64,000 nt of DNA from Yponomeuta sedellus (lineage: Eukaryota; Arthropoda; Insecta; Lepidoptera; Yponomeutidae). Positions 7,901 through 13,900 of the stretch are shown one piece after another. Both the position numbers and the translations under genes were made by a program. Every line of letters begins with the position of its first letter. Position 1 is the stretch's first letter. The stretch covers positions 4,269,487-4,333,486 of the forward strand of contig OW203738.1 in NCBI GenBank assembly GCA_934045075.1, written 5' to 3'. The notes below the pieces were generated by a model. That model worked only from the letters and a program-made list of their open reading frames with translations. It was not told the DNA's origin and made no database searches.

Positions 7901-10900
7901 GAACTTGTCTCAAAATTGGATTGTAGTATCGTCGTTTTGGGTTTAGAAAAACTCTGATAAAATTAAGGTTCGGACCAATTAATTCACTCGGTTAAACTCG
8001 GCTAGTGAGACTGTAGAATTAAACCCTAGAAGTAATAAGCCCCTAGCACTCGAAATCCACGATGGGCACACGTGTTAAATAAGTCTACTCTTCCTTTGCG
8101 TCTTATGTATCCTCCGATAAACAAGACAACGTGAGAATTGGACCAATTCTGTCTCTGTCCGCCGTACAGACAGCCTGCACTCACCGCAACGCTGGAACAC
8201 AGCCAGGCGAAGAAGACCAGCATAACAGAGGCTCGGACTTCCCGCTTCATGAGGAAGGGCACGTAGGCGAACTTGAACAGGTTGTAGAGGGCGCCCTCGC
8301 CGTTATCGGGCGCCGCGTCCGACTTTGTGCCTTGCACGCAGCAGAAGATGTCGAACCTTGCGGGGAGGGAATAGGGGTTAGTTTAGGTTGGATCGTTTTG
8401 GGGAGGGGGCACAAGTAAGATCCACATACGACACAATGAATCGTCGGAATGAACTTTCATTCTTACACATTTTACACTTCTTGCACTCTGGGAAAATTAA
8501 AGATGCCAAGCATGCAGTTCCAGATCTAACATGATTGGATCCGTTGACTAATGAATTCATTCGGCATTTCATGTTCATCCAGGTTTGCTTGGAGTAAATG
8601 ACACTTAGCCAAATTTCGCGTAGACTGTCTATTAATCTTAGGTGTGGGTTATTTTTATTTACATGCATTTTGGACAACTGACAGCTGTACCAAGATTAAC
8701 ACATAGTGTAGGACAAACCGGAGGTGAACAGACGTTTCGATTTTGGAGAAAATAGGTACATTTTTGAAACTGATCAGAAATGTTGATGTTCTAGTGAAAC
8801 TTACCGGTTTGAGTTTTGCCGCCGCGTGTCCACGGCTAGCAGTGCCACGAAGCAAGTGACCTGAAATAAAGTTGACACACGTTATTCTTAAAATTCACAA
8901 TTCCTAAAACACCTCTATTACAATAATATGTTATATAAGATTTTTTTCTCAGATTTAATCAATTAATTATAACTTTCGTAAGCACAACACATTGTAGACT
9001 TTTAGTCCGGATTTACTTACGGGTGTTGTTATATCGGAAAAATCCGACCAGGTTTCGCTCCGATTCGCAGAGCTTAATCATGGTGAGCAGAGACGGAGCT
9101 CGCGTCGTCGGTTGCTTGTCTCACACTACGGGCAAGCGCGAGATAGGTGGGGCGGGTGCCGACACTGGCTGCGGGGGATTCCCGCTGGCTTGCGCCGCAG
9201 CGCCTACTGCTTTCCCGTCGTCAATGCCACTAGGCATGATGGCACAGACACAGCTCACGACATCTTCGTTCTTGCAGTGTCGATTTCGATATTCACTATC
9301 ACTGCACTTTCGTAGAACCGGTTTCCAGGCCGGCGGAAGAGCCCATCCACTGTCTCTATTGAAATTCGGGTGGCGACTTATTTCAATAGCCTCGCGCATT
9401 TAACAACACCCGTAAGTAAATCCGGACTAAAAGTCTACAATTAATTATACTTTAATAACACACATGAAAGGGGTGCGTGAAAGGAGCCTCCCCGAACGAC
9501 GTACTCACTGAGCTACTTTGTCTGGCGCACCCTGGGCAACAATCAGCGAGTGGATTTGCCAACCCCTTACGCTGATTGGCAAATCCTTTCACCGCCACAA
9601 AACATATAAATAACAGCCGACGTATAGCGCGAAGCCGCGCCTAGCAACCGAGTCACCTGCAGGAGGAACTCCACGAGCAGAGCGGCGCGCCTAGCAACCA
9701 GTCACCTGCAGGAGGAAGTCCACGAGCAGCGCGCCTAGCAACCAGTCACCTGCAGAAGGAAGTCCACGAGCAGCGCGCCTAGCAACCAGTCACCTGCAGA
9801 GGAAGTCCACGAGCAGCGCGCCTAGCAACCAGTCACCTGCAGGAGGAAGTCCACGAGCAGCGCGCCTAGCAACCAGTCACCTGCAGGAGGAAGTCCACGA
9901 GCAGCGCGCCTAGCAACCAGTCACCTGCAGAGGAAGTCCACGAGCAGCGCGCCTAGCAACCAGTCACCTGCAGAAGGAAGTCCACGAGCAGCGCGCCTAG
10001 CAACCAGTCACCTGCAGGAGGAAGTCCACGAGCAGCGCGCCTAGCAACCAGTCACCTGCAGGAGGAAGTCCACGAGCAGCGCGCCTAGCAACCAGTCACC
10101 TGCAGAGGAAGTCCACGAGCAGCGCGCCTAGCAACCAGTCACCTGCAGGAGGAAGTCCACGAGCAGCGCGCCTAGCAACCAGTCACCTGCAGGAGGAAGT
10201 CCACGAGCAGCGCGCCTAGCAACCAGTCACCTGCAGAGGAAGTCCACGAGCAGCGCGCCTAGCAACCAGTCACCTGCAGAAGGAAGTCCACGAGCAGCGC
10301 GCCTAGCAACCAGTCACCTGCAGGAGGAAGTCCACGAGCAGCGCGCCTAGCAACCAGTCACCTGCAGGAGGAAGTCCACGAGCAGCGCGCCTAGCAACCA
10401 GTCACCTGCAGGAGGAAGTCCACGAGCAGCGCGTCTAGCAACCAGTCACCTGCAGGAGGAAGTCCACGAGCAGCGCGCCTAGCAACCAGTCACCTGCAGG
10501 AGGAAGTCCACGAGCAGCGCGCCTAGCAACCAGTCACCTGCAGGAGGAAGTCCACGAGCAGCGCGCCTAGCAACCAGTCACCTGCAGGAGGAAGTCCACG
10601 AGCAGCGCGCCTAGCAACCAGTCACCTGCAGAAGGAAGTTCACGAGCAGCGCGCCTAGCAACCAGTCACCTGCAGAAGGAAGTTCACGAGCAGCGCGCCT
10701 AGCAACCAGTCACCTGCAGAAGGAAGTCCACGAGCAGCGCGCCTAGCAACCAGTCACCTGCAGAAGGAAGTTCACGAGCAGCGCGCCTAGCAACCAGTCA
10801 CCTGCAGAAGGAAGTTCACGAGCAGCGCGCCTAGCAACCAGTCACCTGCAGAAGGAAGTTCACGAGCAGCGCGCCTAGCAACCAGTCACCTGCAGAAGGA

Positions 10901-13900
10901 AGTTCACGAGCAGCGCGCCTAGCAACCAGTCACCTGCAGAAGGAAGTTCACGAGCAGCGCGCCTAGCAACCAGTCACCTGCAGAAGGAAGTTCATGAGCA
11001 GCGCGCCTAGCAACCAGTCACCTGCAGAAGGAAGTTCACGAGCAGCGCGCCTAGCAACCAGTCACCTGCAGAAGGAAGTTCACGAGCAGCGCGCCTAGCA
11101 ACCAGTCACCTGCAGAAGGAAGTTCACGAGCAGCGCGCCTAGCAACCAGTCACCTGCAGAAGGAAGTTCACGAGCAGCGCGCCTAGCAACCAGTCACCTG
11201 CAGAAGGAAGTTCACGAGCAGCGCGCCTAGCAACCAGTCACCTGCAGAAGGAAGTTCATGAGCAGCGCGCCTAGCAACCAGTCACCTGCAGAAGGAAGTT
11301 CACGAGCAGCGCGCCTAGCAACCAGTCACCTGCAGAAGGAAGTTCACGAGCAGCGCGCCTAGCAACCAGTCACCTGCAGAAGGAAGTTCACGAGCAGCGC
11401 GCCTAGCAACCAGTCACCTGCAGAAGGAAGTTCACGAGCAGCGCGCCTAGCAACCAGTCACCTGCAGAAGGAAGTTCACGAGCAGCGCGCCTAGCAACCA
11501 GTCACCTGCAGGAGGAAGTCCACGAGCAGCGCGGCGCCGGCGTACAGCGCGAAGGCGCGCACGGCGGGCATGTCGCTGAGAGCGCCCAGGAAGAAACACA
11601 CCGACTCGGAGATCGACGTCAGGAACATCGACGGGCCCACCTGCCCCAGCCTGGCGGGCCATACAGAATGGTTAGTAAGAAATTATTCAACAATCCGACT
11701 GTCGAGGATTAGGTACTAAGCACCAAGCTAGGTACCTTGCAAGAAGTTAAATTGGGAATTTGGGTAGCGTCTGCTTAGCAGTTAATGCTCGGCAGTCGGG
11801 TTGTTGGCTATTATTGACTTAATAGTGTTTTATTTTTTATTTTGTTGGTTGGTATAAAGCTGATGTCATGTACCCTGTGACCCTGTCGATCGATTGAGAT
11901 CTTATTTGTGAAAATCTGACCATTGGGTAAGGAGTTATGAGGAAACATAGAATCGGGCATACATACATACGCACGCGCGTGCCTGCGTGCGTGGGTGCGT
12001 GCGTGCGTATGTGCACCCACGCACGCAGGCACGCACGAGTGTCTTCAACATGGATCCCATTATAACAACTGGCCTATTTTAGATTACGTAGAATTTACGT
12101 GCTCGATACGCTCAGGGACCGTCTCATTAGGTCACCAACCCCTACACTGGCTTGCAGCAGTGTAAAGATGTTCTCAACTCATCAAAAAATGTATGAACTC
12201 CATGATGACAAGCGAAAGTTTGAATTTATTCACCAGCGATTAGCAAAAAAACTTAGGTCGTCCCAATATGCCCAGGGACAGTCTCATTAGGACGCCGTCC
12301 TTCGCGCTGGTTCCTCCTCACCAGTATGAAGATGTTATCAGCTTCAACAGCCATCATCAATAACGGTATGAACCACGATGAGAGCGAAAGGACCAAACTA
12401 GACGACTAGAAAACACTTACGTCCTCCCAATATGCTCCGGGACGGTCTCGTTGGGTCGCCGCCCCTCGCGCTGGTTGGTCTGCACCAGTATGAAGATGTT
12501 GTCGACTCCAACCGCCAGCACCAGAAATGGTATGACCTCCACGATGATGAGCGTCGCCGGGACACCCACGAAGCCGAACATCCCAATGGAGCAGACCACC
12601 GAAGCCAGAACTATCAGGACGCCTGCGGGGGGAAATTATGGTCAAGATGGCCGCTCGACTTACATTCTTCACAGAATATACAACATCTTCCCTTGAAGTT
12701 AACCCAACACCATCCATCCCCTTATAGAAAAGAAACAGCAGCACTAAATGTTTTCCCTACATTCGACTAATGATTTGGCATCTAAGTTATTGATATTGAT
12801 AGAATTTTACATACGTATAGGTAGAACCTATGTATTATGTTTAAGGTGACTTGAGAATAACTGGTCAGAGTTGAGTTTTTTTCCCGCTGCCACATTTCCA
12901 CTACAATACGGCCCGCAGGTAGCGGCTTTCATTGTACATTGACATTCAGCAAACAGAACTTAAATTCTGTACATTCAAATAAAAAAAATATCTAATATAA
13001 TAATAATATAGCATTTATTTCGAACAACTAAGATATAAAAACAAACAAACAAAAGGGTGTTAGTAACAATTATTGTTACTAACACCCTTTTGTTTGTTTG
13101 TTTTTATATGGACCTAAGTTGTTCGTAAGTTGTAAGTTGTCCGTAAGTTTCTAAGTTATATTATTATATAACATATTATTATAAACTTAACAAATATAAA
13201 AACACAATTCCTTAAAACACTCCAAAAATTGCTTATCAAAGTAGTCTGCGGTGAAGATTTTACAAGAAAAAGAGGCTCAAAAGGACTAGTTTCCAGGGCC
13301 GTTAATCTAATATTTAAAAATAAAATACAAGAAAAAGACGTGACCACAGATTAAACAAAACGCGTCTAGGAGTGTTTTAGAGGAGGTATTTTTTAAAATA
13401 AGATCGCTAGTGTATAAAGAAACAAATCTAACAGGCTATAATCAATCTTCCAACTTGTTAATCTGTGAGTTAATCATAACAAACTACGTACTGGATTAGT
13501 GTTAGACGTAGTTAGTTAGTCAGACCTAAGATTTTGCGCACTTAAGTATCATAGTTGGTCCATTGTACGAAGCAAACGTTGATTTATGTTAACACTTCAG
13601 ACACTAGGGTTTCCTTACGATGTTTTCCTTCACAGTTAGTGAGTGGTATTGCTACTTATAACTTCACAAATGTACGTAACTTAGAAAACAAAGTAATTTG
13701 TATTCGAGCCCGGGTTCAAACCCACGACCTCCCGATTAAGAAGCTGGCGTTCTACCGCTCCGCTAGAACAACTTGAGCGTTCTACCGCTCCGCTAGAACA
13801 GCTTGAGCGTTAGACCTAATTGTAGAAGAATGGCCAAGCAAATACTCACCCCCGAGTCCCAAGGTGACTTTGCTGTCAATGAGCAGCCGCGAGCAGGTGG

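What the first reader, a model, noticed from the sequence alone, without database searches (positions are those of the whole stretch)
9633..11505. A 5' splice site turned into a 43-copy minisatellite inside NPC1
Seen directly: the 44-bp unit consists of the last bases of the sterol-sensing-domain exon (coding LLVDFLLQ), the donor CAG|GTGACT and the first intron bases. The authentic donor at 11506 is the first of 43 copies. Copies keep the exon-type or near-exon sequence and all keep the same donor. Inference: the NPC1 transcript carries 42 decoy donors in series behind the real one. The donor is weak (C at +5), so the array might act as a U1 snRNP platform that raises local 5' splice-site strength, or might cause intron-inclusion isoforms ending in VTGC-stop. 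Minisatellites seeded from an exon-intron boundary that preserve the splice site in every unit are unusual.
Basis: partly seen in the sequence, partly recalled or inferred. Interest (0 to 1): 0.87.

Follow-up and report, generated by a model that had tools for sequence, protein, structure and literature searches.

The report
Splice-site minisatellite in moth NPC1 gene
A moth's cholesterol-transport gene carries 43 tandem copies of the end of one exon plus the start of the next intron, so the real splice site is followed by 42 perfect decoys; such exon-edge repeats were described before in lancelets, and this moth seems to have them in several other genes, which offers a natural test of how cells pick one of many identical splice sites.

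Summary
Confirmed. On the minus strand of a lepidopteran NPC1 gene, the last 24 nt of a sterol-sensing-domain exon plus 20 nt of intron form a 44-bp unit. Forty-three identical CAG|GTGACT donors run from 11505 (authentic) to 9656. Fifteen NPC1 exons join in one frame, fixing 11505 as donor and 8860 as acceptor. Retaining any intronic copy gives VTGC-stop. This is a 'mirage': a minisatellite seeded on an exon-intron boundary, described in lancelets (splicing undisturbed) and, as multiple splice donors, in human IFI6. New here: (1) it is not alone. Donor-motif searches of the same genome found further arrays; in seven other genes the array starts at or near the end of an exon with protein homology (strong: TRIM9/67-, spectrin-, Meis-like; moderate: ABCC-, MKK7-, Nup54-, GBF1-like). 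(2) Predicted NPC1 proteins of Tuta absoluta and Arctia plantaginis carry repeats with other units over the same exon junction, suggesting a hotspot. Best reading: neutral tandem duplications survive because the exon-proximal donor is used and the copies become intron. Nothing in the sequence shows selection on the donors or a U1 platform. Each unit also scores as a strong acceptor, so stepwise (recursive) removal is possible but untested.

The parts
11506..11650 (-). NPC1 exon (sterol-sensing domain, ...ALLVDFLLQ), source of the exon part of the unit
11500..11508 (-). authentic 5' splice site CAG|GTGACT (first of 43)
9636..11505 (-). intronic part of the minisatellite: 42 further CAG|GTGACT copies, unit 44 bp (24 exon-derived + 20 intron-derived); the exon-edge copy itself extends to 11533
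9616..9640 (-). 25-nt remnant of exon sequence (22 of 25 match exon 11560-11536) beyond the last donor: trace of an earlier, longer (~75 bp) duplication bounded by GCGCG
   Evidence: 0 of 1000 shuffles reach the score
8861..11505 (-). host intron (2645 nt, phase 0), about 71% of it the array
8805..8860 (-). next NPC1 exon (VTCFVALLAVDTRRQNSNR), acceptor TTTATTTCAG|GTC
12421..12622 (-). preceding NPC1 exon (...VGVDNIFILVQTNQREGRRPNETVPEHIGR), source of an older, decayed donor-spanning duplication
12251..12386 (-). decayed copy of the 3' part of the preceding exon and its donor (GAC|GTAAGT, here GACCTAAGT); TRF period 164 with the exon
   Evidence: score 128, best of 300 shuffles 23
12105..12214 (-). 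second, more decayed copy of the same exon region
   Evidence: score 59, best of 300 shuffles 25
8980..9452 (.). element with 55-nt inverted-repeat arms (MITE-like) inside the same intron, downstream of the array

Best explanation
A neutral exon-edge minisatellite ('mirage'). A tandem duplication across the 5' splice site, at a short GC-rich repeat (GCGCG, later CGCG), placed a second copy of exon end plus donor inside the intron. Because the spliceosome keeps using the first, exon-proximal donor, every added copy is intron and costs little, so slippage or unequal exchange could expand the array to 43 copies and homogenise it. Shown: anatomy, gene model, sequence homogeneity, a remnant of a longer duplication, similar arrays at exon ends of other genes in the genome. 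Inferred: the mutational steps, that donor 11505 is the one used, and that the array is near-neutral.
For: 43 identical donors with the authentic one outermost. The frame across 15 exons requires 11505/8860. Retention of any intronic copy brings an in-frame TAG after 4 codons, so a working protein needs the first donor, or removal of the copies before any decoy that is used. Remnants: the distal copy keeps extra exon sequence and is followed by 25 nt of more upstream exon, with GCGCG at both ends of the ~75-bp founder and CGCG at the 44-bp junction (and reading of the sequence). Patterned variant blocks (GTGAAC block near the exon, repeating 43/44 blocks at the far end) look like repeat turnover. 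Arrays at exon ends elsewhere in the genome: L021 TRIM67/TRIM9 (4e-15), L024 spectrin repeat (7e-11), L044 Meis/PKNOX (5e-18); moderate: L022 ABCC (1.4e-4), L023 MKK7 (4e-4), L025 Nup54 (1e-4), L032 GBF1-like (9e-5). An older decayed donor-spanning duplication sits in the preceding NPC1 intron. Published mirages do not disturb splicing (PMC3087553, PMC3902484, passages seen).
Against: No RNA or population data. In one studied pair of competing human donors (DOK7) the intron-proximal one, there also the stronger, is preferred (PMC5585400, passages); that rule would predict decoy use. In human IFI6 downstream repeat units are used as donors (PMC4526556, passage). Each NPC1 unit also scores as a strong acceptor, so splicing inside the array is possible. 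Among 25 fetched donor arrays, 9 had no open frame of 50 codons at the first donor and 5 that were tested had no match, so not every donor-containing array is an exon-edge one. L022 and L023 had no Pfam match, and the L025 and L032 matches lie below Pfam's cut-offs.
Confidence: 0.75

Rival explanations
1. Recursive-splicing ladder: each unit is an AG|GT site (pyrimidine-rich CTTCCTYCTGCAG|GTGACT), so any splice from an earlier GT to a later AG inside the array recreates CAG|GTGACT flush with the exon. The array is removed in steps and erases its own errors.
For: On a matrix from 14 NPC1 acceptors the unit AG scores 11.2-12.7 bits (four common variants); the 14 real acceptors score 1.7-11.3 in leave-one-out and the real acceptor of this intron 3.7; the two variants compared lie at the 99.0 and 99.4 percentile of 809 AGs of the gene outside the array. 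The form resembles the Drosophila consensus (Y)nNCAG|GTAAGT (PMC5126111, passages).
Against: The pyrimidine tract is simply the coding sequence FLLQ; the donor half has C at +5; the matrix is small; no branch-point test; no RNA.
Confidence: 0.1
2. Regulatory array: serial donors act as a U1 platform or produce regulated VTGC-stop isoforms that tune NPC1 through nonsense-mediated decay.
For: 43 intact donors; retained copies give a stop; IFI6 shows that minisatellite donors can be used (PMC4526556, passage).
Against: Donor sparing is within chance (P 0.10-0.25). The two other lepidopteran species with likely repeats at this exon pair have other units, and nearly all other listed lepidopteran proteins show none there; protein records would not show a purely intronic array, so this is weak.
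Confidence: 0.08
3. Assembly expansion or collapse artefact.
For: Tandem arrays are error-prone; one Papilio machaon protein record has a large NPC1 block duplication that other P. machaon records lack.
Against: The array has ordered internal variants and clean flanks in a 22-Mb contig; arrays of similar build lie in other genes of the assembly. Exact copy number may still be off. No reads were available.
Confidence: 0.05

Closest known systems
[quoted passage not shown]
   Same: Unit spans the boundary and holds the splice signal; unit 44 bp lies within the 10-72 bp reported for Adh3; homogenised inner units and a divergent edge unit
   Different: Lepidopteran; 43 copies at a 5' site, against 3 and 6 units at a 3' site in the two BflGb6 haplotypes (Adh3 copy number not seen by me); all donors intact; further genes in the same genome. 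In lancelets RT-PCR suggested regular splicing; not tested here
Human IFI6 (6-16/G1P3) minisatellite providing multiple splice donor sites (Turri 1995; I saw only its title in reference lists and one sentence on it in PMC4526556)
   Same: Minisatellite repeat units offering serial splice donors
   Different: There two downstream units are used as donors and give isoforms; here decoy use would give a stop
Internal tandem repeats at exon-intron boundaries of human segmental-duplication genes (PMC2812944, passages); intron gain by duplication of AG/GT proto-splice sites (Rogers model, as cited in PMC3087553)
   Same: Tandem units with AG|GT at a boundary; copies turned into intron
   Different: The NPC1 intron uses an acceptor outside the array; I have no evidence that the intron itself is new
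Recursive splice sites of Drosophila long introns (PMC5126111, passages)
   Same: Each unit has pyrimidines + CAG|GT
   Different: Short intron, tandem origin, C at +5; function untested

Membership tests
Mirage (exon-intron boundary minisatellite) | Tandem unit spans an exon-intron boundary | tested here: met
Mirage (exon-intron boundary minisatellite) | Site that joins the reading frame lies in the outermost, exon-side copy | tested here: met
   (by frame and homology; not by RNA)
Mirage (exon-intron boundary minisatellite) | Concerted evolution of units with divergent array edge | tested here: met
   distal unit 49 nt with own changes, array 98% matches
Mirage (exon-intron boundary minisatellite) | Regular splicing despite copies | not testable with these tools
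   no RNA held
Mirage (exon-intron boundary minisatellite) | Length polymorphism between haplotypes | not testable with these tools
   one assembly; one search says no relatives are held
Recursive splice site | Pyrimidine tract + YAG|GT with acceptor-like and donor-like halves | tested here: met
   acceptor score; donor energy
Recursive splice site | Stepwise splicing intermediates | not testable with these tools
   no RNA
IFI6-type multiple-donor minisatellite | Downstream unit donors used in mature mRNA | not testable with these tools
   no RNA; use would give VTGC-stop

The most novel reading that the evidence does not exclude
Splice-shielded duplication as a genome-wide process in moths: tandem duplications in exons are tolerated mainly when they cross a splice site, because first-donor choice (or recursive AG|GT removal) hides every extra copy in the intron. 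Exon-edge minisatellites then recur in many genes and repeatedly at the same junction (NPC1 in this species, Tuta and Arctia), grow introns, and later decay by losing GT, as in the preceding NPC1 intron. They form a natural series of up to 43 identical competing donors.
Probability: 0.4. Interest if true: 0.75.

Novelty: new member of a known kind. Interest (0 to 1): 0.6.

Why it matters
How the spliceosome chooses among identical 5' splice sites can be studied with a few sites in a minigene; here nature offers 43 in a conserved gene where the wrong choice gives a stop, plus similar loci with other unit lengths, two of which (L028, L032) stay open in frame through the stretch of array that was read. 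It would extend mirages from lancelets to Lepidoptera as a multi-gene class and gives a route by which introns lengthen from exon sequence. Such arrays may also mislead gene prediction: one Arctia NPC1 model contains 17 repeat units.

Tried and rejected
Selection on donors: not needed. Array elsewhere in the genome: none found; one 3-mismatch hit on C23. A second close NPC1 copy as source: none among the matches to a 356-aa piece; the only other place is 40% identical, in a 1269-aa open frame on C18. Intron start as relic of the next exon (GTGACT versus GTCACT): seen, too short to claim. The control pattern (AGGTRAGT read backwards) gave 89 and 96 places. The largest share is one TCCATTCA octamer array on C12, and at least seven of the other arrays contain GGTGAGTGGA, that is, donor motifs again. 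It is no clean control and I quote no enrichment factor. No match: L018, L020, L033, L039, L041, L043, L046; not counted. L037 has a coding-looking unit but a flank that resembles another flank fetched here (L036), so probably a dispersed repeat; not counted. First acceptor matrix included the unset start of the first modelled exon; redone without it, and the new figures are used. Literature searches aimed at insects listed no such case by title; nine library searches were made in all.
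Full report
WHAT IS THERE. The window lies on a 22-Mb contig (C19) of a 657.5-Mb assembly. The gene on the minus strand is NPC1: the joined SSD exons match Pfam Sterol-sensing (E 4e-52) and solved NPC1 structures (E 4e-53). Three-frame searches of 3400-18399 on that strand placed most exons, and 15 exons from 18948 to 1888 join in one open frame of 961 codons. 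The 5' limit of the first of these exons was set arbitrarily, and exons further 5' and 3' were not modelled. The nearest database proteins are lepidopteran, the best at 79-81% identity. A tree of 34 selected proteins of the 123 then held plus this one puts the species near Plutella, among the earlier branches of the sampled moths; the clade excluding Plutella has support 0.98, the node joining Plutella 0.12. The species was not identified.

THE ARRAY. TRF finds 43.1 copies of a 44-bp unit at 9636-11533. On the gene strand the exon 11650-11506 ends ...CTGCTCGTGGACTTCCTCCTGCAG, followed by GTGACTGGTTGCTAGGCGCG, and then that pair repeats. There are exactly 43 CAG|GTGACT sites. Homology fixes the true junction as LLQ|VTCF: donor 11505, acceptor before 8860. 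The intron opens with V-T-G-C-stop, so keeping any copy ends the protein. Among the 15 donors of the modelled exons it is the only one without G at +5, but its U1 pairing energy is 9th of 15.

HISTORY. Copies next to the exon form a block of variants (GTGAAC, CTT); the far half is mostly exon-like, with an ordered pattern of 43- and 44-nt units. The last copy is 49 nt, keeps extra upstream exon sequence, and is followed by 25 nt that match exon 11560-11536 at 22 positions (0 of 1000 shuffles score as high). I read this as the trace of a founding duplication of about 75 bp bounded by GCGCG, from which the 44-bp unit arose at a CGCG repeat and expanded (inference). In the preceding intron two decayed copies of the 3' part of exon 12622-12421 lie in tandem; the nearer keeps sequence across the old donor but has CTAAGT in place of GTAAGT. 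NPC1 thus holds a young and an old donor-spanning duplication.

NOT ALONE. The intron part of the unit occurs nowhere else apart from one 3-mismatch hit. I then searched the genome for three consensus donors in tandem. CAGGTAAGT three times gave one locus. AGGTRAGT three times with gaps of 10-40 and 41-71 gave 170 and 184 overlapping places, of which about the first hundred each are listed, ending on C19. By eye these listings hold 26 arrays, one of them an octamer microsatellite; I fetched the other 25. In 12 of the 25, chosen for their open frame at the first donor, I tested that frame by homology. Six gave a match at E 5e-4 or better: L021 TRIM67/TRIM9 SPRY (4e-15 against the PDB; Pfam SPRY only 0.045), L024 spectrin repeat (7e-11), L032 GBF1-like (9e-5, below Pfam's cut-off; its apparent true donor, GTGAGC, lies just upstream of the array), L025 Nup54 (1e-4, below the cut-off), L022 ABCC transporter (1.4e-4 against the PDB, no Pfam match) and L023 MKK7 (4e-4 against the PDB, no Pfam match). 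L027 (GPCR end) was weak (0.012 and 0.019); L018, L020, L033, L039 and L041 had no match. The other 13 were not tested by homology: in 9 of them the longest frame at the first donor is open for under 50 codons, in L028, L037, L038 and L040 for longer. Of four further arrays fetched from the control listing (three tested), L044 is a Meis/PKNOX homeobox exon (5e-18), and L043 and L046 had no match. The homology reaches to within one residue of the donor in L021, L022, L024, L025 and L044; in L023 it stops 38 residues short, in the same open frame. TRF on 14 of the loci shows 6-62 nt of the exon end inside the array at the six confirmed ones among them (L044 by reading: range there not measured). 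So donor-edge minisatellites look like a multi-gene class here, three cases strong and four moderate besides NPC1. I give no enrichment factor because the control motif also picked up donor arrays.

RECURRENCE AT NPC1. Among the 120 proteins listed by the first search (of 3000 matches), 3 have repeated 10-mers, all lepidopteran, and all three repeats cover this exon junction: Tuta absoluta (4 copies, 58-residue period), Arctia plantaginis (35-residue unit FLLQ|VTCF...NR SVQCSTFSTARH) and one Papilio machaon record (a two-copy multi-exon block absent from other records of that species, so probably assembly). A second search listed 41 further proteins. Three of them have repeats: two more Arctia models with 17 and 11 units at this junction, and Phthorimaea operculella, in the N-terminal part. 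Two diverged Arctia forms (73% and 82% identical before and after the array) share near-identical units. Units and break points differ from those here, so separate events are likelier than descent (inference). This is protein-level evidence from gene predictions; I could not see the DNA.

HOW IT WORKS. Best reading: a duplication that crosses a donor leaves the first donor flush with the exon. If the machinery commits to that donor, all later copies are intron and almost free of cost, which would explain why exon-derived arrays are found at exon edges. Published lancelet mirages splice normally (PMC3087553, PMC3902484; passages). The alternative outcome, use of downstream units, is reported for IFI6 (PMC4526556, passage). 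A third possibility is that the unit's CTTCCTYCTGCAG|GT is also acceptor-like (11.2-12.7 bits; 14 real acceptors 1.7-11.3 in leave-one-out), so splicing within the array would recreate the same donor and be self-correcting. Only RNA can tell.

WHAT IS KNOWN AND NEW. The kind is known (mirages; IFI6; tandem repeats at exon-intron boundaries in human duplicated genes, PMC2812944, passages). I found no insect report in the searches made (73 of a partial library; titles and abstract starts seen), which is not proof of absence. New as far as I could see are the taxon, the copy number with all donors intact, the multi-gene occurrence and the hint of a hotspot.

Noticed in passing
12105-12386: Two decayed tandem copies of the preceding NPC1 exon and its donor region in its downstream intron; the nearer has lost the GT.
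   Followed up: yes
8980-9034 and 9398-9452: 55-nt inverted repeat, 89% complementary, 363 nt apart (MITE-like) in the same intron; each arm contains CCCGTAAGT or its complement, a donor-like string.
   Followed up: partly
29340-30061, 34364-35985: Tandem ~307-bp repeats carrying tRNA-Ser(GGA)-like genes, in both orientations (12 tRNA hits in the window, 11 of them Ser).
   Followed up: no
37806-38141; 43484-44397; 54796-55115; 58494-59399: Other tandem arrays: (CATA)84, 308 bp x3, 87 bp x3.6, 176 bp x5.2.
   Followed up: no
G000:C18:13812553-13813620: Second NPC1-family match (40% identity) in one uninterrupted 1269-aa frame: an intronless-looking paralogue, NPC1b by recall.
   Followed up: no
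L028 first donor at 2951; L032 first array donor at 3132 on its minus strand: Donor arrays with 27-nt and 30-nt units that stay open in frame (VSDAAADPE; VSRPDTIMCK) through the stretch read; decoy use would add repeat peptides instead of a stop. L028 was not tested by homology.
   Followed up: partly
P0123 (Phthorimaea operculella): N-terminal NPC1 gene model with repeated CPSCWKSFLQHICAMTCGPQHSLYLQPAAYEKFND blocks, partly read in another frame: perhaps another exon-derived minisatellite in lepidopteran NPC1.
   Followed up: no
P0121, P0122, P0038 (Arctia plantaginis): Two diverged NPC1 forms share near-identical repeat units although 73% and 82% identical before and after the array: inter-copy homogenisation or a gene-model artefact.
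   Followed up: partly
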